Source: Pseudomonadota bacterium | Lineage (GTDB): Bacteria > Pseudomonadota > Gammaproteobacteria > Xanthomonadales > Rhodanobacteraceae | Reading direction: 5' to 3' | Length of the DNA stretch: 64,000 bases | Assembly: GCA_018241365.1 (NCBI GenBank) | Contig: JAFEDX010000197.1 | Span: 1-64,000, forward strand | Shown here: piece by piece, positions 43,091 to 54,985 of the stretch | How the letters are laid out: each line of letters opens with the position of its first letter | Position numbering within the stretch: position 1 is the stretch's first letter | Translations under genes and position numbers: made by a program | Notes under the pieces: model-generated | What the model was told of the DNA's origin: nothing | Seen by the model: the letters and a program-made list of their open reading frames with translations, nothing else | The model's database searches: none

Positions 43091-43810
43091 ATGGATACCG
43101 CGTTCGCACCGTCGATGATCGAAGCCCCCCACCCGCGGAACGACTTGGCCGCACTGCCCGAGCTGGACATCGAACAGTTGCAGCGCCACATGCTCGTCAC
43201 GCAACGGAAGGTACGCGCGGGCCAGTACCTGTATCGCAACGGCCAGCCGTTCCATGCGCTGTACCTCGTGCACGCCGGGTTCCTGAAGACCTGTGAGCTC
43301 ACGGTGGATGGCCGTGAACAGGTGACGGGTTTCCGGATGCGCGGCGACCTGCTGGGCGTCGAGTCCATCGGCCTTGCCGTCCACACCTGCGATGCCGTGG
43401 CGCTGGATGATTCCGTGATCTGGGAGCTGGCTTATCCGCCGGTGCTGAATGCGTGCCTGCACGTGCCCGAGCTGCAGGCACGGCTGGCCGCCGCCCTGGC
43501 CGAGGAAATCCGCCGCGATCGCGCGTGGATGCTCTCGATCGCGACCCTGCCGGCCGAGCAGCGCGTGGCGTCGTTCCTGCTCGACCTGGCCGCGCGCCTG
43601 GCGCGCCTGGGGTTCAGCGCCCGCCATTTCATCCTGCGCATGGGACGCGCGGACATCGCGAGCTTCCTCGCGCTCAAGCACGAAACGGTGAGTCGCGCGC
43701 TGTCGCACCTCGAGCGGCTCGGTCACATCTCGGTGCAACGACGCGAGGTGAAGCTGCTCGACGTGGCGGCGTTGCGCAGCCTGGTCGGCCTGCCCTGCAC
43801 GGTCCAGTGA
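43091..43810 (+). CDS. Crp/FNR-family regulator without cluster cysteines (DNR-like)
   Basis: A 239-residue regulator with a cNMP-type sensor domain (about 35-140), a long dimer helix and a C-terminal helix-turn-helix. The recognition helix region ADIASFLALKHETVSRALSHL carries E198, S201 and R202, the FNR-type residues, so it should read TTGAT-like sites as FNR does. The N-terminus (MDTAFAPSMIEAPHPRNDLA) has no cysteines, and the remaining Cys (68, 100, 122, 236) do not form the FNR pattern, so it is not an iron-sulphur oxygen sensor. This is the profile of DNR/NNR regulators, which sense NO through haem. It abuts the convergent kinase gene with no spacer. Confidence 0.8.
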   Translation: MDTAFAPSMIEAPHPRNDLAALPELDIEQLQRHMLVTQRKVRAGQYLYRNGQPFHALYLVHAGFLKTCELTVDGREQVTGFRMRGDLLGVESIGLAVHTCDAVALDDSVIWELAYPPVLNACLHVPELQARLAAALAEEIRRDRAWMLSIATLPAEQRVASFLLDLAARLARLGFSARHFILRMGRADIASFLALKHETVSRALSHLERLGHISVQRREVKLLDVAALRSLVGLPCTVQ

Positions 43811-45865
43811 TCAACCGCCTTCGAGCACGCGCTGGATCGCGCTGACCAGCTGTTCGCGGCGGTAGGGCTTGCGCAACAGTTCGAAGCCGTCCAGCCGGTT
43901 GTCCGCCGCCTGCCGGTCTTCCGCACCCGGGTAGCCCGAAGTCAGCAGGACCGCAAGTCCGGGCCGGCTGCGGCGGGCCTCGCGCGCCAGTTCCACGCCG
44001 TTCATGCCGCTGCCCAGCACCACGTCGGAGAACAGCAGGTCCACGGCGGGCTGCGCGCGCAGGGTATCCAATGCCTCACGCGCGTCGGCGACCGCGATGA
44101 CGTCGTAGCCGATGGCGCGCAGGAAGCGGGTGGCGATGGTGCGTACGTCGGTTTCATCTTCGACCACCAGGATGGTCGCGTGTCGCGGCGGCTCTGCGGA
44201 GTGGGCTGCCTGCGGCAGCTCGCGCCTGCTGCCCGGCTCGTTGTCCGCGACCGGCAGCACCAGCGTGACGCGCGTGCCGTAGCCCAGCCTGCTGTCCATG
44301 GCCATGGCACCGCCGGACTGGGTGACGAAGCCGTACACCATGCTCAGGCCGAGGCCGCTGCCCTTGCCGGAAACCTTGGTGGTGAAAAACGGTTCGAGCG
44401 CGTGCGCCTGCACCTCGGGCGGCATGCCGGTGCCGCTGTCGGCGACGTCGATCGCCACGTATTGGCCGCGCGGAAGCTTCCATTCGTTGTCGGCGTTTGC
44501 AAGCTCGATTTCGCGCGCCGTGATGGCCAGGCGTCCGCCGCGCGGCATCGCGTCGCGTGCGTTCAGCGCGAGATTGACCAGTGCCGTGTCCAGTTCGTTC
44601 GGATCGGCGTACACGTCGGGCACCGCCGTCGCGCAATCCACGTCCACCGCGACCGCTTCGCCGAGCGTGCGCCGCAGCATGTGGCCCAGTTCCTCCAGCA
44701 GTGGCTGCGGCACGATCGCCCGCGGCCGCAGCGGTTGCCGGCGCGCGAACGCCAGCAGCCTGCGGGTGAGGTCGGCGCCGCGGTCCACCGCCCGCAACGC
44801 GCTGTCGATGGCTTCCTGGGCCTGGGGTTGGGCGGACAGCTCCATCTCCAGCAGTTGCAGGTTGCCCGAGACCACCGTCAGCAGGTTGTTGAAGTCGTGC
44901 GCGATGCCGCCGGTGAGTTGGCCGATCGCGTCGAGCCGTTGCGCGTGCGCCAGCTGTTCTTCACTGCGGCTGCGCTCCACGGTCGCGGACAGCAGGGTGG
45001 CGACCGATTGCAGGAAACCGACCTTGTCGCGGTCGAAGCCGGCCGGCGCGTACGCCAGCGCGACCAGGGCGCCAAGGGGCTCGTCGCGTCCGAACAACGG
45101 CACCATCGCGACATCGTGGAAGCCGGCGGCCGCGAGGTTCGCGCGGATCGTCGCGTGCTGCCCGCCACGCAGGGTTTCCAGCGTGACCGCGTCCGGTCCG
45201 CCTGCGGCGAAGGTGCTGCGCACGAACCGGGTTTCTCCGAACGTTGCCGCCAGGGTTTCCGCGGCCTGAGCGGAAAGCCCCGTGAACGCCCGCACGCGCA
45301 GGTCGCTGCGGTGCCAGTCGGTGGAAAGGATGGCCACCGCCGGCACGTCCAGCGCCGTGCAGACCAGTTCCGGAATGCGCTGGATCGCGCGTTCGTAATC
45401 GCGCGATTCCAGCGCGAGCCGTCCGATCTGCATGACGAAGGTGTCGCGCCGCGTGCGTTCCATCGCCTGCTGCACGCGGCGGGTCTCGGAGATGTCGCGC
45501 ACCGAGGCGATCGTGATGAGGCCCTGCTCCGTGGCGACCGGGCTCAGGCCGATCTCGACCTGGAATTCCCGTCCGTCCCGGCGCACGCCCAGCAGCTCGG
45601 TGCCGATGCCCATCGGGCGTGTGCGTGGCCGCCGCAGATAGTCATCGCGGTGCTTGCGGTGGGCGTGTCGCAACGGTTCCGGTACCAGCACGTCCAGCGC
45701 CATCCCCTGCAGGGTTCCGGCGGGGTAGCCGAACATCGATTCGGCCTGCAGGTTGGCCAGCACGATGGTGCCTTCCGCATCCACCGCAAGCATCGCGTCG
45801 GGCGCAATGGCGAAACATCCTTGCAGGGTGGCGAAGCTCGCGGAGGGCACGCCGGCCGGGGTCAT
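43811..45865 (-). CDS. Hybrid histidine kinase (PAS-GAF-HisKA-HATPase-receiver)
   Basis: A 684-residue soluble hybrid sensor kinase with no transmembrane segment. A PAS domain is at about 10-130 (LAVDAEGTIVLANLQAESMF), a GAF-like domain at about 150-305, the H-box IGQLTGGIAHDFNNLLTVVS with His near 323, then HATPase boxes (NLALNARDAMPRGG, DSGTGMPPEV, GSGLGLSMVYGFV), and a C-terminal receiver from about 563 with its Asp near 613 in LLFSDVVLGSGMNG. It is a cytoplasmic sensor, perhaps redox- or ligand-linked through PAS/GAF. It overlaps the upstream regulator gene by 4 bases (ATGA), so the two are one operon, driven from the region with the box at 46641. Confidence 0.88.
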   Translation of the reverse strand: MTPAGVPSASFATLQGCFAIAPDAMLAVDAEGTIVLANLQAESMFGYPAGTLQGMALDVLVPEPLRHAHRKHRDDYLRRPRTRPMGIGTELLGVRRDGREFQVEIGLSPVATEQGLITIASVRDISETRRVQQAMERTRRDTFVMQIGRLALESRDYERAIQRIPELVCTALDVPAVAILSTDWHRSDLRVRAFTGLSAQAAETLAATFGETRFVRSTFAAGGPDAVTLETLRGGQHATIRANLAAAGFHDVAMVPLFGRDEPLGALVALAYAPAGFDRDKVGFLQSVATLLSATVERSRSEEQLAHAQRLDAIGQLTGGIAHDFNNLLTVVSGNLQLLEMELSAQPQAQEAIDSALRAVDRGADLTRRLLAFARRQPLRPRAIVPQPLLEELGHMLRRTLGEAVAVDVDCATAVPDVYADPNELDTALVNLALNARDAMPRGGRLAITAREIELANADNEWKLPRGQYVAIDVADSGTGMPPEVQAHALEPFFTTKVSGKGSGLGLSMVYGFVTQSGGAMAMDSRLGYGTRVTLVLPVADNEPGSRRELPQAAHSAEPPRHATILVVEDETDVRTIATRFLRAIGYDVIAVADAREALDTLRAQPAVDLLFSDVVLGSGMNGVELAREARRSRPGLAVLLTSGYPGAEDRQAADNRLDGFELLRKPYRREQLVSAIQRVLEGG

Positions 45866-46584
45866 GTCCCTTCACCCCGCGCCACGCGCGCCGCGAAGAG
45901 GTAGCCCGCGCCGCGCACCGACTTGATCAGCTCGGGGTTGGCGGGGTCGGCCTCGATCTTGCGGCGCAGGCGCCCGATCTGCACGTCGATCGCGCGGTCG
46001 AACGGCCCGGCGCTGCGGCCGTGGATGTGCCCCATCAGGTCGTCGCGCGAAAGGACCCGGTTGGGGTGTTCGACCAGCACGCGCAGCAGGTCGTACTCGC
46101 CGCTGGTGAGGGCCACCGCACGACCCTGGTCGTCGCGCAAGGTGCGGCCGTCCGGGTCGAGCGTGAAGCCGGCAAACCGGAACTGCACCTTGGCGGGCGT
46201 GTCCGTGCCGGCGGCGGCGCTGCGCCGCAGCACGCTGCGCACGCGGGCGAGCAGTTCGCGCAGGTCGAACGGCTTGGTGACGTAGTCGTCGGCACCGAGC
46301 TCCAGGCCGACCACGCGGTCCACCGATTCGCCGCGGCCGGTGATGATGATGAGTGCGCCGTTCCAGTCCTTGCGCAACTGGCGCGTCAACTCGAAACCGT
46401 CCTCGCCCGGCAGGCCGAGATCGAGCAACACCAGATCAACGGCGTTCCCGGCGAGGATGCGGCGCATCCCGGCACCATCCTCGGCGGTGCTGACCGTGAA
46501 TCCCTGGCCCGTGAAATAACGTTGCAGCAAGTCCAGTACGCCGGGGTCATCGTCCACGACCAACAGGTGCAAGGGTTCCGGCAT
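45862..46584 (-). CDS. OmpR-family response regulator
   Basis: A 240-residue regulator: acidic residues DDD at 11-13, phosphoacceptor D55 in LVLLDLGLPGEDG, Lys in YVTKPFDLRELLAR, and a winged-helix domain (TSGEYDLLRVLVEHPNRVLS through IDVQIGRLRRKIE, then VRGAGYLF). It is translated just ahead of the hybrid kinase and divergently from the universal stress protein gene. It resembles the KdpE/OmpR-type proteins paired with soluble hybrid kinases in proteobacteria. Confidence 0.9.
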   Translation of the reverse strand: MPEPLHLLVVDDDPGVLDLLQRYFTGQGFTVSTAEDGAGMRRILAGNAVDLVLLDLGLPGEDGFELTRQLRKDWNGALIIITGRGESVDRVVGLELGADDYVTKPFDLRELLARVRSVLRRSAAAGTDTPAKVQFRFAGFTLDPDGRTLRDDQGRAVALTSGEYDLLRVLVEHPNRVLSRDDLMGHIHGRSAGPFDRAIDVQIGRLRRKIEADPANPELIKSVRGAGYLFAARVARGEGT

Positions 46585-46640
46585 GGGGTGGACGGGTGGG
46601 TGAGACGATCCGGAATCTTATCGCAACGCTGCGCTGCGGG

Positions 46641-46654
46641 TTGACGCGCGTCAA
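46641..46654. promoter_or_regulatory. FNR-type box between the response regulator and usp genes
   Basis: TTGACGCGCGTCAA, a full palindrome over 14 bases. On the plus strand CATGCT at 46676-46681 begins 28.5 bp from the centre, and on the minus strand AAGATT (46619-46614) does the same, both with A2 and T6. It could therefore activate usp and the regulator/kinase operon at once. Confidence 0.65.
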
Positions 46655-46731
46655 TACCGTAAACTTGCGCGGGCGCATGCTGATTCGAACCGGAATTTCC
46701 GCAGCGCAGTTCGCACAATCGGAGCACAGCC

Positions 46732-47550
46732 ATGCAAGACATCCTCATCCATGCGCGGGATTTCGGTTCACACACATTGGCCGCGGAATTTGGTGTCCGC
46801 CTTGCGGCCAGGTCGGGTGCGGCGGTGACCGCGGTGTACGCAGCGCCCGAGCCCGTGTACGTCGCGCCCGCATTCGAGCCGGAGTTGATGTCGGCCATCA
46901 TGGAAAACACTCGCGAGCTTGTGCGGCAAGCGGTGCAAGCCCGGCAGCGGTTCGTGGAATGGGCGAATTCACTGGGCGTGGTCCAGGCCGAATGGCTGGT
47001 CGCGCAAGGCGATCCTGTCGATGCGCTCACGCAGGCTGCCACCCGCCACGACCTGATGGTGCTCGACCACGGCGACGACACGCAGGGTTCGCCGTGGGAT
47101 ATTCCCGGACTGATTCTCAAGGCCGGCTGTCCCTGCATCGTGGTGCCGCGCCGCGCGGAGCTGCCGGGTCCGTTCGAGCGGATCGCGATTGGCTGGAACG
47201 GCTCGCCCGAGGCGATGCGTGCGGTCCATTCGGCGTTGCCGTTCCTGCAGGGCAAGCAGGTGTTGTTGCTGTGGGGCGAGGAGCGCGGCAAATATCAGGG
47301 CGTGGAGTGGGAGCCGCCGTTCAACGTCCACGATTACCTGCAGCACCGCGGTGTCGCGGTCGAGCAGCGCGCGGTCGATGCCGGCCACGATGATGTCGGT
47401 GCGGAGTTGCTCAAGGAAGCCACCCGCTTCAGGGCCGATCTGCTGGTGATGGGCGCCTACGGGCGCACCCGCTTCAGCGAATGGATGCTGGGCGGCGCGA
47501 CGCGCCACGTGCTGGCGTGGTCGGAGATTCCCGTGCTGCTGCGCCACTGA
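46732..47550 (+). CDS. Universal stress protein, two tandem Usp domains
   Basis: A 272-residue cytoplasmic protein with two UspA-like folds: a divergent first one (about 1-140) and a canonical second (about 150-272) with AIGWNGSPEAMRAVHSAL and the nucleotide-site motif GAYGRTRFSEWMLGGATRHVL. Tandem Usp proteins often bind ATP and help long-term survival under anaerobiosis; in Pseudomonas such genes belong to the Anr regulon. GGAG lies 9 bases before the ATG at 46732. An FNR-type box in class II position upstream supports the same control here. Confidence 0.9.
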   Translation: MQDILIHARDFGSHTLAAEFGVRLAARSGAAVTAVYAAPEPVYVAPAFEPELMSAIMENTRELVRQAVQARQRFVEWANSLGVVQAEWLVAQGDPVDALTQAATRHDLMVLDHGDDTQGSPWDIPGLILKAGCPCIVVPRRAELPGPFERIAIGWNGSPEAMRAVHSALPFLQGKQVLLLWGEERGKYQGVEWEPPFNVHDYLQHRGVAVEQRAVDAGHDDVGAELLKEATRFRADLLVMGAYGRTRFSEWMLGGATRHVLAWSEIPVLLRH

Positions 47551-48580: not shown

Positions 48581-49786
48581 ATGGTCGAAGACTATTACGC
48601 GTATCCCGACGCGCACGGACGCTTCGGTGCCTACGGTGGCACCTTCGTCGCGGAAACCCTGATCGCGCCGCTGGATGAACTGAAGGCGGCTTACCTGCGT
48701 TTGCGCGACGATCCGGCATTCCAGCGCGAGTTCGCGGATGACCTCAAGCACTATGTCGGGCGGCCGTCACCGATCTATCACGCGAAGCGATTGTCGCAGC
48801 AGAATGGCGGCGCGCAGATCCTGCTGAAGCGCGAGGACCTGAACCACACCGGCGCGCACAAGATCAACAACACCGTCGGCCAGGCGCTGGTTGCGCGCGC
48901 GATCGGCAAGCAGCGCATCATCGCCGAGACCGGGGCGGGCCAGCATGGCGTCGCCACCGCCACGGTGTGCGCGCGCTTCGGGATGCAGTGCGTGGTGTAC
49001 ATGGGCGCGGTGGACATCGAGCGCCAGAAGATCAACGTGTACCGGATGAAATTGCTGGGCGCGGAAGTGATCCCGGTGACCTCGGGTTCGCAGACCCTGA
49101 AGGATGCGCTGAACGAAGCCCTGCGCGACTGGGTGACCAACGTCGCCGATACCTTCTACATCATCGGCACGGTCGCAGGGCCGCATCCGTACCCGATGAT
49201 GGTGCGCGACTTCAATGCCGTGGTCGGGCGCGAGGCGCGCGCGCAGATGCTGGAGCAATTCGGCCGCCTGCCCGACGTGCTCACCGCGTGCGTGGGCGGC
49301 GGATCGAATGCCATCGGTTTGTTCCACGCGTTCCTCAACGATCGCGAGGTGCGCATCGTCGGTGCCGAGGCGGCGGGCGAGGGCATCGCGACCGGCCAGC
49401 ATGCGGCGTCGCTGGCTGCGGGCCGCCCCGGCGTATTGCACGGCAATCGCACGTATGTTCTTTGCGACGACGATGGCCAGATCACCGAAACGCATTCGGT
49501 GTCGGCAGGGCTCGACTATCCCGGCGTCGGTCCCGAACACGCGTTCCTGAAGGACAGCGGACGCGCGGAATACGTGGGGGTGACCGACGACGAAGCGCTG
49601 GCCGCGTTCCATCTGTTGTGCGAAACCGAGGGGATTCTTCCGGCGCTCGAGTCCAGCCACGCGGTGGCGCAGGCGATCAAGCTGGCGCGTGAATTGCCGA
49701 AGGACAAGTTGATCCTGTGCAACCTGTCCGGCCGCGGCGACAAGGACGTGCACACCATTGCCAAGCGTGAGCACATCGAGCTATGA
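48581..49786 (+). CDS. trpB: Tryptophan synthase beta chain
   Basis: A 401-residue PLP enzyme that joins indole and serine. The PLP lysine is in [16 protein letters not shown] (near residue 88), the phosphate loop is [13 protein letters not shown], and [16 protein letters not shown] opens the protein. It overlaps trpA by 4 bases. The upstream 117-base spacer, shared with the LysR gene, contains the A/T-rich stretch GATGATATCGCTTTTTGCAA, a plausible regulator and promoter site. Confidence 0.98.
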
Positions 49787-50598
49787 GTGGGCGCATCGAA
49801 ATGCGTTTCGCGGACCTGCGTACGCGAAACCGCGCTGCGCTGATCCCGTTCATCACCGCGGGCGATCCCTTGCCGGAAGCCACGGTCGCGGTGATGCACG
49901 CACTGGTCGAAGCCGGTGCGGACCTGATCGAACTCGGCATGCCGTTTTCCGATCCGATGGCAGATGGTCCGGTGATCCAGCACGCCGATGAACGCGCGTT
50001 GCGCAATCATGTCGGCATCGCGGACATCCTCGGCTGGGTGCGCGAATTCCGCCTGCGTGACGACGCGACGCCGGTGGTGCTGATGGGCTACCTGAACCCG
50101 ATCGAGATCCACGGTGTCGAGCGCTTCGCGCGCGGGGCCGTGGCGGCAGGCGTGGACGGCGTGCTCATCGTCGATTGCCCGATCGAGGAAGACGCGGCCC
50201 TGCAACCGCTGCGCGCTGCCGGGCTTGCGCGCATCCTGCTGGCCGCGCCGACCACCACCGATGCGCGGCTGGCACGGGCGCTGGAAGCCGCGGAGGGCTA
50301 CCTCTACTACGTCTCGTTCGCCGGCATCACCGGTGCGGCGAAGCTGTCGGCCGATGCCATCGCGACGCGGGTCTCCGGCATGCGCCGTCACGCACGGGTT
50401 CCGGTTGCGGTCGGTTTCGGCATCAAGGATGCCGCCAGCGCGGGGGCTGTCGCCGCATTTGCCGATGCCGTGGTGATCGGTTCGGCGCTGGTCGACCGGC
50501 TCGCGGGCGCAGGGTCGCCGGGAGACGCCTGCCGACGTGCGCGCGATTTTCTACTGCCGGTGCGCGAGGCCATTCGCGAGTCCGGCGAAAATCCGTAG
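49783..50598 (+). CDS. trpA: Tryptophan synthase alpha chain
   Basis: A 271-residue TIM barrel that splits indoleglycerol phosphate to indole. Catalytic Glu is in [19 protein letters not shown] (about residue 50) and Asp in [42 protein letters not shown] binds the phosphate. It is translationally coupled to trpB. The next gene of the ancestral block, accD, is displaced 3.5 kb downstream by a haem-copper gene cluster. Confidence 0.98.
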
Positions 50599-50657
50599 GG
50601 CGCCCTTCCAACCCTGTTCATGGGCGCACATCGAATTGATCATAAAGAGGAAATTTG

Positions 50658-50679
50658 GATCTTGATCTAGATCAAGATC
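50658..50679 (+). promoter_or_regulatory. 22-bp palindrome containing a consensus FNR box, upstream of the CuA/haem-copper cluster
   Basis: The core TTGATCTAGATCAA (50662-50675) is the FNR/Anr consensus and the symmetry extends to GATC on both sides. A near-consensus -10, TATGAT at 50684-50689, has TTGATC at 50662-50667 as its -35 (16-base spacer), so a bound regulator would cover this promoter. The class II distance of 28.5 bp instead falls on TGTAAA at 50697, a poor hexamer. The position thus favours repression, or activation from the weaker start. A further TTGATCATAA half-site lies at 50637. Confidence 0.75.
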
Positions 50680-50738
50680 AATGTATGATCGGGCAGTGTA
50701 AAAAACACAACCCGCTGCGGAGTAGGAGGGGTGCCTAC

Positions 50739-51284
50739 ATGATCCTGCAGAACGTCGTCTGGACCGTCTGGCTGATTGGGGCGGCGCTCATCGCGCTGGG
50801 ATTCATTTTCGTGATCGTGCAGGCGGGCAAACCCGCCGACGCGGGCGCGGGCGAGAAGTCCGTGCATACCTCGCACGTGCTGCAGGGTTGGTTGTTTGCG
50901 GTGCTGCTGGTGGCATTCTTCGTCGGCAGCTGGGCCACGCTGCATCGCTTTCCCCTCCCGCCGCAGCATCGCCCGCTCGATGCGGCCCAGGTTGTCGAGG
51001 TGGTCGGACGCCAGTGGTCGTGGCAGATCACGCCCGCCACCGTCCAGAACAACAGCGTCGTCGAGTTCCGCGTCACCAGCGACGACGTCAACCACGGGTT
51101 TGCCATCTACGCCCCCGATGGCCGCATCGTCACGCAGACCCAGGCGATGCCGGGCTACACCAACAAGCTGCTCTACCGTTTCGAACAGCCCGGCACCTAC
51201 ACCGTGCAGTGCCTTGAATACTGCGGGCTCGGGCATGCCCCCATGAAAACCACCCTCGAGGTGGTTGCTGCGAAGGGAGAGTGA
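50739..51284 (+). CDS. CuA-containing subunit II of a haem-copper NO reductase-type complex
   Basis: A 181-residue membrane-anchored CuA protein. Transmembrane helices are at about 7-28 and 49-67, and the periplasmic cupredoxin domain carries all CuA ligands: H119, then C158, E160, C162, H166 and M169 in CLEYCGLGHAPM. It would receive electrons from a cytochrome c and pass them to the catalytic subunit. It is shorter than typical CoxB. The ATG at 50739 follows GTAGGAGGGG. It is the first gene of a four-gene set that matches the norSY-senC-orf1 clusters of ammonia oxidisers; the assignment of the letters S and Y is not made here. Confidence 0.8.
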   Translation: MILQNVVWTVWLIGAALIALGFIFVIVQAGKPADAGAGEKSVHTSHVLQGWLFAVLLVAFFVGSWATLHRFPLPPQHRPLDAAQVVEVVGRQWSWQITPATVQNNSVVEFRVTSDDVNHGFAIYAPDGRIVTQTQAMPGYTNKLLYRFEQPGTYTVQCLEYCGLGHAPMKTTLEVVAAKGE

Positions 51285-51286
51285 CC

Positions 51287-52801
51287 ATGGCTTCACTCAC
51301 CATGTATCCGGACAACGAGCGGCTGGCCGGCGGCGAGCGCGCCGTGTTCAACCTGTACCTGATCTCGGCGGTGGCGTTGTTCGTCCTGATGATGCTGCTC
51401 GGGTTGACGATGCGCATGACGCAGGCGACATGGCTGGGCCTGCCGCCGGACATGTTCTACAAGTTCCTCTCGATGCACGGTGCCGGAATGGTCGGCACCG
51501 CGGTGATGGCAACAACGGCGGTGATGTGGTTCTTCCTGCGCAAGTACGTGCGCTTGCACCTGTGGGCGTTCGTCACCAATTACGTGCTGTTCCTGCTCGG
51601 TGCGTTGTGCATCATCTACGCCGTGTTCGTCGGCGGCTACGCCGGGCTGTGGACCTTCCTGTACCCGTTACCCACCCACAGTGCCGGCTTGTGGACGCCC
51701 AATGCGGCGGCGCTGTTCATGGTGGGCTACCTGCTGATCGGCGTGGGCGAGCTGATTTTCTACCTCGACGCCGCGGCAGGGATCATCAAGGTGTACGGCA
51801 ACCTGGGTCGCGCGCTGGGCCTGCCGTGGTTGTTCGGCGGCAAGCTCGACCCCGACCACCCCAAGACGGTGGTGGCCAGCACCAGCATGATCATTGCCAA
51901 TTCGTTGGGCATACTCGCCGGCGCGGTCGTGCTGGTGATGAGCCTCATCAACATCTTCTACCCGCAAGTCGCGCTGGATGCGTTGTTTACCAAGACGCTG
52001 ATCTACTGGTTCGGCCACATGTACATCAACGCCGCGATCTACATGGGCGTGATCGCGATCTACGAACTGCTGCCGCGCTACACCCACAAGCCGTATCCGC
52101 TTTCGCGCGTGTTCCTGTGGGGCTGGGCAGCGACCACGCTATTCGTGATCATCGTGTTCCCGCACCACTTGTTGATGGATTACGCCGAGCCCCACTGGTT
52201 CCTGATCATGGGGCAGATCGTGTCGTGGACGTCGGGCCTTCCGGTGGTCGTGGTGACCGCGATGGGCGCGTTCACCAACCTCTATCGAGCCAACATGCGC
52301 TGGACCATGCCTTCGCGGCTGCTGGTGCTGTCATTGTTCGGCTGGATCGCAGGCGGATTCGGCGCGGTGCTGGACAGCACCATCCAGATCAACCTCGTGA
52401 TGCACAACACGCAGTGGGTGCCGGGGCATTTCCACTTCTACCTGCTGCTTGGCGTGCTGGCGATGGCGCTTGCGGTGATGTACCACGTCATCGGCTCGCA
52501 CGTGAACCAGCCGCCCAACACGGGTCTCGACCGGGTGGGCTTCCCCGTATACCTGGTCGGCGGGTTGATCTTCGTGGTGTCGTTCCTCGACGCAGGCCAT
52601 TTGAGCGTGCCGCGGCGCATGGCCGAGCACCTGCCCGCGTGGACCGGCACCGACAAGCTTGCATCCGTAGGCGCGATCCTGGTGGTGCTGGCGATGCTGT
52701 ATTTCGCCCTGCGTATCAGCGTCGGGTTGCTGCGCAGGCCGGCATCCGGCGGGGCAGCAGCGTCCCGTGGGGGTGTAGGTGCTGCGGACGCTGCTGGCTA
52801 G
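51287..52801 (+). CDS. Haem-copper catalytic subunit, sNOR-type nitric oxide reductase candidate
   Basis: A 504-residue subunit I with about 12 transmembrane helices. Low-spin haem ligands are H64 (SMHGAG) and H383, the high-spin haem ligand is H381 (WVPGHFHFY), and CuB-site histidines are H244, H293 and H294 (FPHHLLMDYAEP). Oxidases of the A and B classes have Tyr four residues after the first CuB-site His; here the segment is FGHMYINAA, with N248 in that place. Loss of the cross-linked Tyr is the mark of NO-reducing members of the superfamily, and a CuA partner plus SenC suggests the sNOR family. A ba3-like O2 reductase is the alternative annotation. I chose ATG 51287 over GTG 51281 for its spacing from AAGGGAGAG. 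Confidence 0.78.
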   Translation: MASLTMYPDNERLAGGERAVFNLYLISAVALFVLMMLLGLTMRMTQATWLGLPPDMFYKFLSMHGAGMVGTAVMATTAVMWFFLRKYVRLHLWAFVTNYVLFLLGALCIIYAVFVGGYAGLWTFLYPLPTHSAGLWTPNAAALFMVGYLLIGVGELIFYLDAAAGIIKVYGNLGRALGLPWLFGGKLDPDHPKTVVASTSMIIANSLGILAGAVVLVMSLINIFYPQVALDALFTKTLIYWFGHMYINAAIYMGVIAIYELLPRYTHKPYPLSRVFLWGWAATTLFVIIVFPHHLLMDYAEPHWFLIMGQIVSWTSGLPVVVVTAMGAFTNLYRANMRWTMPSRLLVLSLFGWIAGGFGAVLDSTIQINLVMHNTQWVPGHFHFYLLLGVLAMALAVMYHVIGSHVNQPPNTGLDRVGFPVYLVGGLIFVVSFLDAGHLSVPRRMAEHLPAWTGTDKLASVGAILVVLAMLYFALRISVGLLRRPASGGAAASRGGVGAADAAG

Positions 52802-53390
52802 CCTGTTGATCCTGGCGGCCGGCGTCGCAACGCTGGCGTTCGCGACCGACGGTTTCCGCGCATTCACGTCCGAGACCGCCCGTCGCATCGACGTGCGCGA
52901 GCATCCCCGTCGTTTGCCGGACGTGCCCTTGCAGGCCGCCGATGGCCGGACCTTGCGTTTCGACGCGCTGCATGGCCGCTGGCTGCTGGTGGACTTCATC
53001 TACACGCGTTGCACGACGTATTGCTCGGTGCAGGGCAGCGAGTTCGCGCGCCTGCAGCGGGGACTGGCCGGACCCATCGGGGAAGGCAAGGTCACGCTGC
53101 TCAGCATCAGCTTCGACCCGGCACGCGATGGCCCCGAACAATTGGCGGCGTATCAGCAACGTTCAGGCGACCAGGGCACGGGCTGGATCGCGGCGCGCCC
53201 TGCCGATACGCCGGGCCTTGCCGCGCTGATGCGGGTGTTCGGCGTGACCGCGATTCCCGATGGACTGGGCGGCTATGTGCACAACGCGGCCATCGCCGTG
53301 GTCGATCCGGAGGGACGGCTGGTCGCGATCGAGGACTGGGACGATCCGGGGGCAGCCGAGCGCTACGTGCGCAGCAGGTTGACGCCATGA
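52779..53390 (+). CDS. senC: SCO1/SenC-family copper chaperone
   Basis: A 203-residue membrane-tethered thioredoxin-fold protein that delivers copper to CuA or CuB sites. An N-terminal transmembrane anchor is at about 4-22; the copper site is C78-x3-C82 in YTRCTTYCSV with H168 in GGYVHNAAI. The start is GTG at 52779, overlapping the catalytic subunit gene by 23 bases, so the two are tightly coupled. Such a chaperone is expected for CuA loading in the same operon. Confidence 0.9.
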   Translation: MLRTLLASLLILAAGVATLAFATDGFRAFTSETARRIDVREHPRRLPDVPLQAADGRTLRFDALHGRWLLVDFIYTRCTTYCSVQGSEFARLQRGLAGPIGEGKVTLLSISFDPARDGPEQLAAYQQRSGDQGTGWIAARPADTPGLAALMRVFGVTAIPDGLGGYVHNAAIAVVDPEGRLVAIEDWDDPGAAERYVRSRLTP

Positions 53391-53977
53391 ACGCACGGCC
53401 GACGTGGTACCGGAAGCCTTGGATCGGGCTGGGTCTGTGGGGCCTGCTGGTCCTGCCGCCCGTGCGGCACGTGCTGGAAGCCACTATGACCCTGCAGATG
53501 CTGGCGCAGATCCCGTTGCTCGCCGCTGCCGGGTGGTGGCTGGTGCCGCCCACGCTGCAGCGGGCAAGTACGCTGGACGCGTGGAACCGCAGCGGCATCA
53601 GCGGGCTCGTGCTGGCCTCGCTGACGGCCATGGCCTGGATGCTGCCGCGGATGATGGATGCGTCACTGGAAAACGGGTGGATCGAAACCGCCAAGTTCAT
53701 CAGCGTCCCGCTGCTGCTGGGCGTCCCGCTGGCTGTCAGCTGGCCACGCGCGGGTTTCGTCGTCCGCGGGGTGTTCCTGGCGGAAGTGATTGCCACCGCG
53801 TTCCGGTTGGGCTGGCTGTACCGGATCTCGCCGATACGGTTGTGCAGCAACTACCTGCTCGGTGACCAGCAGCTGCTTGGAAACCTGCTGCTGACAGCCG
53901 GTGCGGCGCTCTGCCTCGTCGTGGCGTGGCAATTGCTGTGGGGCCATATCCGCGTCGAAGCGCCACGCAGCGGTTGA
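53387..53977 (+). CDS. Multi-span membrane protein of the haem-copper cluster (orf1-like)
   Basis: A 196-residue inner-membrane protein with five or six predicted helices (for example WIGLGLWGLLVLPPVRHVLE, ISGLVLASLTAMAWMLP and LLTAGAALCLVVAWQLLWGHI). H27 and the charged residues around RMMDASLENGWIE are notable. It overlaps senC by 4 bases. In norSY-senC-orf1 clusters a membrane protein occupies this position and is thought to assist assembly or maturation; CtaG/DUF420-type assembly factors are another comparison. No function can be assigned from sequence alone. Confidence 0.7.
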   Translation: MNARPTWYRKPWIGLGLWGLLVLPPVRHVLEATMTLQMLAQIPLLAAAGWWLVPPTLQRASTLDAWNRSGISGLVLASLTAMAWMLPRMMDASLENGWIETAKFISVPLLLGVPLAVSWPRAGFVVRGVFLAEVIATAFRLGWLYRISPIRLCSNYLLGDQQLLGNLLLTAGAALCLVVAWQLLWGHIRVEAPRSG

Positions 53978-54121
53978 GGCTGGCAACAGGATTCGCGCGC
54001 GTGGCCGCTGCCGTCGGTGGTTCAAGAGGTTGATCGGACACGGATTGATGGTATCGCTGTCGAGAGCGACCCTGCTGGCGGTGTATCCTTGGCACATTGC
54101 GATCCGCCCTTGGGGGCCGCC

Positions 54122-54985
54122 GTGTCCTGGCTGCAGAAACTGACGACACCCAAAATCCGTACCGAAGGTGCGCCCGCCCGCGGCAAGGTGCCGGAAGGCG
54201 TGTGGGAGAAGTGCTCGGGCTGCGGCATCGGCCTGTACCGTCCCGAACTCGAACGCAACCTGATGGTGTGCCCGAAATGCGGTTACCACCATCCCATCGG
54301 CGCGCGCGCTCGGCTCGCGGCCTTCCTCGACGAAGGCGGCGATGAAATCGCGGCCAGCCTTGCGCCTGTCGATACATTGAAGTTCAAGGATTCCAAAAGG
54401 TATCGCGACCGCATCCTTGCCGCCCAGAAAGCCACCGGCGAAAAAGACGCGCTGGTGGCAGTCTCGGGCGAGCTGAAGGGCATGCCGGTGGTTGCCTGCG
54501 CGTTCGAGTTTTCCTACATGGGCGGTTCGATGGGCTCGGTGGTGGGCGAGAAGTTCACCCGCGCCGCCGAAGCCGCGTTGCACGCCAAGACTCCGTTCGT
54601 GTGCTTCACCGCAACCGGTGGCGCGCGCATGCAGGAAGGCCTGCAATCGCTGATGCAGATGGCCAAGACGTCGGCCGCGCTGGCCCGCCTGCGCAAGGCC
54701 GGGTTGCCGTACATCGTGGTGCTGACCCACCCGACCACCGGCGGCGTATCCGCCAGCCTCGCCATGCTGGGCGACATCCAGATCGCCGAGCCCAAGGCGC
54801 TCATAGGCTTCGCCGGCCCGCGCGTGATCGAACAGACCGTGCGCGAGACCCTGCCGGAAGGCTTCCAGCGTTCCGAGTTCCTGCTGGAACACGGCGCGAT
54901 CGACATGATCTGCGATCGCCGCGAATTACGCGATCGCATTGCCGATCTGCTGGCGATCCTGATGCATCGCGCGAAGGTGGCGTGA
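54122..54985 (+). CDS. accD: Acetyl-CoA carboxylase carboxyltransferase subunit beta
   Basis: A 287-residue subunit that, with AccA, transfers the carboxyl group from biotin to acetyl-CoA for fatty acid synthesis. The N-terminal zinc ribbon is [14 protein letters not shown]...VCPKCGYHH (two Cys pairs near residues 31-56), and [18 protein letters not shown] and [20 protein letters not shown] are crotonase-fold signatures. The start is GTG at 54122 ([14 protein letters not shown]), the conserved N-terminus; upstream extensions lie in the promoter. Confidence 0.96.

What the first reader, a model, noticed from the sequence alone, without database searches (positions are those of the whole stretch)
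50739..53977. CuA-type nitric oxide reductase cluster hidden under a ba3-oxidase look
The catalytic subunit keeps all six histidines (H64, H244, H293, H294, H381, H383) but has N248 where A- and B-class oxidases carry the His-Tyr cross-link tyrosine. The partner has a full CuA site, then SenC/SCO and a small membrane protein follow with overlaps. This four-gene order matches the norSY-senC-orf1 clusters known from ammonia-oxidising bacteria. Automatic annotation would probably call it cytochrome c oxidase. In a Rhodanobacteraceae-like genome, where denitrification is common, an NO reductase independent of cNor/qNor would be of real interest.
Basis: partly seen in the sequence, partly recalled or inferred. 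Interest (0 to 1): 0.75.

Follow-up and report, generated by a model that had tools for sequence, protein, structure and literature searches.

The report
Copper-type nitric oxide reductase operon (sNOR)
A four-gene operon in a denitrifying soil-type bacterium looks like it encodes an ordinary cytochrome c oxidase, but by sequence, gene order and family tree it is the sNOR family, a predicted nitric oxide reductase that annotation pipelines usually miss, and its DNA control sites point to nitric oxide rather than oxygen as its substrate.

Summary
Window 50739-53977 encodes a CuA subunit II, a haem-copper subunit I with all six histidines and Asn248 in place of the cross-link tyrosine, a SCO/SenC protein and a small membrane protein. 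It is a member of the known sNOR family (norSY-senC-orf1). Subunit I falls in a 47-row sNOR clade (SH-aLRT 100) with Nitrosomonas, Nitrococcus and Ruegeria, apart from A-, B- and C-type oxidases and cNOR/qNOR. N248 is in every relative where that codon is readable; 91 of 95 clusters keep the senC and orf1 partners. The genome also carries NirK, NorCB, qNOR and NosZ, so sNOR is a third NO reductase here, not a replacement. New here is regulatory evidence on the open NO-versus-O2 question: the genome's only perfect TTGATN4ATCAA box lies upstream in class-II promoter position, and NsrR-like operators precede 13 of 82 sNOR clusters (4 hits in 651 kb elsewhere), 11 of the 13 with an NsrR-type gene nearby. 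Close relatives fuse to subunit II a cytochrome c domain like that of this genome's NirK. NO reductase function is likely but unproven; a high-affinity oxidase role has been proposed for sNOR. New member of a known kind.

The parts
50661..50676 (+). CTTGATCTAGATCAAG, perfect DNR/FNR-type operator (activator site)
   Evidence: Only perfect TTGATN4ATCAA in the 3.23 Mb genome; identical to the DNR consensus CTTGATnnnnATCAAG of PMC1274295; same kind of box in three same-genus clusters
50697..50702 (+). TGTAAA, -10-like hexamer 21 nt after the box (class II FNR-type promoter layout)
   Evidence: Same 21-nt spacing to TACAAG in L010, L011, L013; inference, no transcript data
50739..51284 (+). norS: CuA subunit II, two N-terminal TM helices, C-x-E-x-C-x3-H-x2-M
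51287..52801 (+). norY: catalytic haem-copper subunit I, 12 TM helices, six His, N248/Y252
52779..53390 (+). senC/SCO copper chaperone (CuA assembly)
   Evidence: PF02630 3.9e-15; relatives in 92 of 95 loci
53387..53977 (+). orf1: small membrane protein of about 6 TM helices, no Pfam/NCBIfam family, no similar solved fold found
   Evidence: Relatives downstream in 93 of 95 loci; model pLDDT 90; no convincing fold match
43091..43810 (+). CRP/FNR-type regulator without the N-terminal Cys cluster (DNR-like), recognition helix ETVSR; candidate activator, 7 kb upstream
   Evidence: its 78% identical paralogue lies on the norCB-nosZ contig. Link to the operon is inference

Best explanation
The cluster is an sNOR operon (norS-norY-senC-orf1). 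NorS takes electrons from periplasmic cytochrome c or azurin at CuA and passes them to the low-spin haem (H64/H383) and then to the high-spin haem (H381) and metal (H244, H293, H294) centre of NorY. There 2 NO + 2 e- + 2 H+ give N2O + H2O. Asn248 replaces the tyrosine that oxygen reductases use to split O-O, so O2 reduction should be poor. SenC loads copper into CuA; orf1 is a partner membrane subunit or assembly factor. In this genus the operon is switched on by a DNR/FNR-type activator; elsewhere in the family an NsrR-type repressor controls it. It works as a third NO reductase in a nirK, norCB, qnor, nosZ denitrifier. Shown here: gene content, residues, family membership, operators as sequence, co-occurring denitrification genes. 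Inferred: electron path, substrate, regulator identity, role of orf1.
For: Clade of 47 sNORs at SH-aLRT 100, apart from A, B, C and c/qNOR. N248 in 41 of 41 readable rows and Y252 in 42 of 42 aligned relatives. The SCO and orf1 genes follow in 91 of 95 loci, Nitrosomonas and Ruegeria included. 12 TM helices in NorY and two TMs in NorS, as described for Bacillus type II qCuANOR with Asn (PMC3475470). Published signature: sNOR = N (PMC8756737). A perfect DNR box, unique in the genome. NsrR-like operators upstream of 13 of 82 sNOR clusters against 4 in 651 kb elsewhere, and an NsrR/RirA-type gene near 11 of the 13. The genome has NirK, NorCB, qNOR with NnrS, and NosZ. Nitrococcus mobilis, with a close homologue (66%), has no cNOR or qNOR, and indirect NO reductase activity of its sNOR is reported (PMC6967387).
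Against: No enzyme assay exists for this protein, and none on a purified sNOR was found in the papers read; PMC11388526 lists sNOR as proposed, not characterised. N. europaea sNOR rises under O2 limitation and was proposed to be a high-affinity oxidase (PMC6967387). An FNR-type box also fits a microaerobic oxidase: a one-mismatch box lies by the cbb3-like genes of this genome. No NsrR-like site in the window, and most relatives show neither motif. No bNOR, eNOR, gNOR or nNOR sequence was in the tree.
Confidence: 0.78

Rival explanations
1. It is mainly a high-affinity (low-O2) terminal oxidase that resembles an NO reductase; NO reduction is a side activity.
For: PMC6967387 proposes this for N. 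europaea sNOR from transcription under O2 limitation and the presence of a haem-copper centre. CuA and SenC are oxidase-like. An FNR-type box would suit low O2; a one-mismatch box lies by a cbb3-like cluster of this genome.
Against: The catalytic tyrosine is absent from every relative, with no replacement at the cbb3 helix-VII position. NsrR-type, NO-linked control in many family members. The genome already has aa3 and two cbb3-type oxidases.
Confidence: 0.17
2. It is another CuA-type NOR class (bNOR, gNOR, eNOR or nNOR) and not sNOR.
For: bNOR/CuANOR also has Asn at this place and a similar gene set (PMC3475470, PMC8756737).
Against: 12 TMs in subunit I and 2 TMs in subunit II fit Bacillus type II, not type I with 13 and 1. 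gNOR has Asp and eNOR Gln. Direct clade membership with Nitrosomonas norSY and Ruegeria.
Confidence: 0.03
3. The operon is a recently acquired, unexpressed or non-functional passenger.
For: Patchy presence in the genus: cluster between trpA and accD in six genomes, bare trpA-accD junction in nine.
Against: Four intact overlapping frames, all ligands intact, promoter box with conserved spacing in three sister species.
Confidence: 0.02

Closest known systems
sNOR (norSY-senC-orf1) of Nitrosomonas and Nitrosococcus
   Same: Same four genes in the same order, Asn at the cross-link position, CuA subunit II, orf1 homologous; about 50% identity in subunit I to Nitrosomonas
   Different: Host is a denitrifier by gene content with NirK, NorCB, qNOR and NosZ, not an ammonia oxidiser; DNR-type box upstream
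sNOR of Nitrococcus mobilis Nb-231
   Same: 66% identical over subunit I; same gene order
   Different: There it is the only haem-copper NOR beside one aa3 oxidase
bNOR / qCuANOR of Bacillus azotoformans (the purified CuA NOR)
   Same: Asn in place of Tyr, CuA subunit II, SenC and a small membrane protein alongside (PMC3475470)
   Different: Type I has 13 TM helices in subunit I and one in subunit II plus a 46-aa peptide; the window matches the type II description
ba3-type (B-family) cytochrome c oxidase
   Same: CuA subunit II, six His, general fold; Tyr at H+15 conserved (Y259)
   Different: Has the cross-link Tyr; outside the sNOR clade
cNOR / qNOR
   Same: Substrate (predicted). The H+4 and H+8 slots on helix VI are polar (Glu/Glu in this genome's NorB and qNOR, Asn/Tyr here)
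   Different: No haem c NorC, no FeB-site Glu, very distant sequence

Membership tests
sNOR (norSY-senC-orf1) | Asn at the position of the cross-linked Tyr (H+4 on helix VI) | tested here: met
   N248 by alignment to oxidases; 41 of 41 readable relatives; table in PMC8756737 gives N for sNOR
sNOR (norSY-senC-orf1) | All six metal/haem histidines | tested here: met
   H64, H244, H293, H294, H381, H383 invariant
sNOR (norSY-senC-orf1) | CuA cupredoxin subunit II encoded next to subunit I | tested here: met
   C-x-E-x-C-x3-H-x2-M near the NorS C-terminus
sNOR (norSY-senC-orf1) | Gene order norS-norY-senC-orf1 with homologous orf1 | tested here: met
   orf1 homologous to the ORF in Nitrosomonas loci L097, L098, L100, L104
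sNOR (norSY-senC-orf1) | Subunit I groups with named sNORs and outside O2 reductases | tested here: met
   47-row clade, SH-aLRT 100; quick method, no bNOR/eNOR/gNOR rows
sNOR (norSY-senC-orf1) | NO reductase activity | not testable with these tools
   Needs biochemistry; family activity only indirect in the literature read (PMC6967387)
B-type (ba3) oxygen reductase | Tyr cross-linked to the helix-VI His | tested here: not met
   N248; no Tyr
C-type (cbb3) oxygen reductase | Cross-link Tyr supplied from helix VII | tested here: not met
   Matching position is V287 (invariant); this genome's CcoN has SVYMWAGSHH
cNOR / qNOR | Glu at H+4 (FeB ligand); NorC haem c partner or quinol-type N-terminal extension | tested here: not met
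   Asn248, CuA partner; own NorB and qNOR have Glu at +4 and +8
bNOR (CuANOR type I) | 13 TM subunit I and one-TM subunit II | tested here: not met
   12 TM helices in the model; two TMs in NorS
eNOR / gNOR | Gln (eNOR) or Asp (gNOR) at the Tyr position | tested here: not met
   Asn248; residues from PMC8756737

The most novel reading that the evidence does not exclude
The sNOR family is a genuine NO-responsive NO reductase with its own active-site signature (H-x3-N-x3-Y, N248/Y252, in the same helix slots as Glu/Glu of cNOR and qNOR). It is switched by two independent kinds of NO/low-O2 regulators in different lineages, and in some lineages it gains a tethered cytochrome c domain shared with NirK, so it is a modular part of denitrification well beyond nitrifiers.
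Probability: 0.4. Interest if true: 0.6.

Novelty: new member of a known kind. Interest (0 to 1): 0.42.

Why it matters
sNOR is annotated as cytochrome c oxidase and so escapes most surveys of N2O-producing genes; here it sits in a Rhodanobacteraceae-type denitrifier and in many relatives. Whether sNOR reduces NO or O2 is still disputed. The operator evidence (a DNR-type box here, NsrR-like sites and NsrR-type neighbours elsewhere) points to NO and makes the question directly testable in culturable Rhodanobacter or Nitrococcus strains.

Tried and rejected
The orf1 model matched no solved fold convincingly; nothing is concluded from that. A correlation of sNOR with nosZ inside the genus was looked at (all three genomes with a clear nosZ carry sNOR, against about half of the 16 genomes overall) and is too small to use. 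The reversed-pattern control for the one-mismatch FNR boxes (73 against 5) was not used, because the reversed pattern is rich in stop-like triplets. Considered and rejected: ordinary ba3 or cbb3 oxidase (no cross-link Tyr), NO dismutase (no qNOR-like architecture). The PNAS 2024 survey of NOR classes (recalled, doi 10.1073/pnas.2316422121) is not in the library, so its text was not used.

Full report
1. What is there. Pfam recognises COX2, COX1 and SCO1-SenC; the fourth has no family. NCBIfam finds only sub-threshold models, oxidase ones on top, so a pipeline would call it an oxidase; deposited relatives in Ruegeria and Thermomicrobium are indeed labelled cytochrome c oxidase. All six histidines are present and the alignment with solved oxidases puts Asn248 on the cross-link tyrosine.

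2. Family. Homologues were found in seven other genomes of the same genus and in few other members of the phylum sample, then in 80 named loci. The aligned rows keep the six histidines, Asn248 where readable (one record has masked bases there) and Tyr252. The SCO gene and a homologue of the small membrane protein follow in 91 of 95 loci, including four Nitrosomonas loci; norSY-senC-orf1 is the name of this cluster in the ammonia-oxidiser literature (PMC4940428). In a tree with A-, B- and C-type oxidases, cNOR and qNOR, the 47 sNOR-type rows form one side of a branch with SH-aLRT 100, and the window lies deep inside. The model has 12 transmembrane helices and subunit II two N-terminal ones, as published for the Bacillus type II enzyme with Asn, SenC and a 4-5 TM protein (PMC3475470). 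The other conserved tyrosines on helix VI are at H+8 and H+15, too far along the helix for a bond to H244 (inference from helix geometry).

3. Active-site signature. On helix VI the residues at H+4 and H+8 are Glu/Glu in this genome's NorB and qNOR, Ala/Thr in its CcoN, Tyr/aliphatic in A- and B-type oxidases, and Asn/Tyr in the sNOR rows, Thermomicrobium included (sequences). This is a direct sequence observation; its catalytic meaning is inference.

4. Genome. The host draft (3.23 Mb, 222 contigs) has six COX1-family genes: aa3, two cbb3-type, NorB with NorC, qNOR beside an NnrS-like protein (named from its HPFRPLF start, not by a family hit), and the window gene. It also has a NirK-like protein with fused cytochrome c domain, below the NCBIfam cut-off but with the copper-site motifs, and a clade I NosZ on the norCB contig. 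It is therefore a denitrifier by gene content with three NO reductases. The sNOR cassette lies between trpA and accD here and in five sister genomes, while nine sister genomes have trpA next to accD without it; two of those nine carry sNOR elsewhere. That is a clean presence/absence cassette.

5. Control region. CTTGATCTAGATCAAG (50661-50676) equals the DNR consensus CTTGATnnnnATCAAG of PMC1274295. It is the only perfect TTGATN4ATCAA in the genome. Three sister clusters carry the same kind of box, followed after exactly 21 nt by a -10-like hexamer (TACAAG; TGTAAA in the window), the layout of a class II FNR-type promoter. One-mismatch boxes lie near norC, azurin and the cbb3-like cluster (genes named by reading the sequence). 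Two CRP/FNR-type regulators, 78% identical, lack the N-terminal cysteine cluster and carry an ETVSR recognition helix: one at window 43091-43810, one on the norCB-nosZ contig. Across the family, 13 of 82 upstream regions hold an NsrR-like palindrome of at least 16/22 matches, against 4 hits in 651 kb of other locus sequence; for nearly all of these, none of 60 shuffles scored as well. Eleven of those 13 loci also carry an Rrf2 gene of NsrR/RirA type, against 3 of 69 others. Related loci are not independent, so the Fisher value overstates; the Rrf2 proteins score below NCBIfam's NsrR cut-off and some match RirA as well or better. In Nitrosococcus oceani the published table also lists NsrR (Noc2967) two locus numbers from sNOR (Noc2969-2971; PMC3772326).

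6. Electron donor. Four close relatives (two of the same genus) have a cytochrome c domain fused after CuA in subunit II. It is 46-61% identical to the C-terminal domain of this genome's NirK, and the one tested is about 58% identical to a domain fused to the genome's FixO-like subunit. The window protein lacks it. This supports cytochrome c as donor and ties the enzyme to the nitrite reductase side (inference).

7. Function. The weight of evidence favours NO reduction: missing oxidase tyrosine, NO-linked regulation in the family, denitrifier context, and Nitrococcus mobilis with sNOR but no other haem-copper NOR, for which indirect activity is reported (PMC6967387). Against it stands the proposal that N. 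europaea sNOR is a high-affinity oxidase (same paper), and the fact that an FNR-type box alone could also mean low oxygen. I give NO reductase 0.78, oxidase 0.17.

8. Novelty. The family, its gene order and its Asn are known; this is a new member in a lineage not discussed for sNOR in the papers that could be searched. The family-wide operator evidence and the cytochrome-c-fused subunit II were not found in those papers either, but subscription literature could not be searched.

Limits. The tree used a quick search and lacked bNOR, eNOR, gNOR and nNOR rows. Many relatives are metagenome bins whose organism names may be wrong. Operators are sequence matches, not tested binding.

Noticed in passing
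L008:1501-4497 region (rev), L009, L045:2910-3882, L050:3005-3986: Subunit II of four close sNOR relatives carries an extra C-terminal cytochrome c domain after CuA (a caa3-like arrangement on an sNOR); the same domain type is fused to NirK and to a FixO-like subunit in the window's own genome.
   Followed up: partly
L018, L019, L020, L021, L068, L074, L079, L092, L096, L099, L101, L103, L105 upstream of norS: NsrR-like palindromes upstream of sNOR clusters, 11 of 13 with an NsrR/RirA-type Rrf2 gene nearby, upstream or downstream of the cluster.
   Followed up: partly
window 43091-47550: CRP/FNR-type regulator (DNR-like, no N-terminal Cys cluster), a PAS-GAF hybrid histidine kinase and an OmpR-type response regulator side by side, followed by a universal stress protein: a possible redox/NO sensing block 3-7 kb from the sNOR operon.
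   Followed up: partly
window 49783-54985: The sNOR operon is inserted between trpA and accD; nine same-genus genomes have trpA and accD adjacent without it, and in Dokdonella relatives sNOR lies just after accD.
   Followed up: yes
G000:C103:64900-67350 (L131:6933-9343): A second cbb3-like cluster: CcoN-like subunit far below the ccoN cut-off next to a FixO-cytochrome c fusion, with a one-mismatch FNR-type box at C103:67466. A close relative is in Rhodanobacter thiooxydans.
   Followed up: no
window 53387-53977: orf1 family: about 6 TM helices, strongly conserved residues (W84, P87, D91, E133, R140, C153, Q161), no Pfam or NCBIfam model, no solved fold match.
   Followed up: partly
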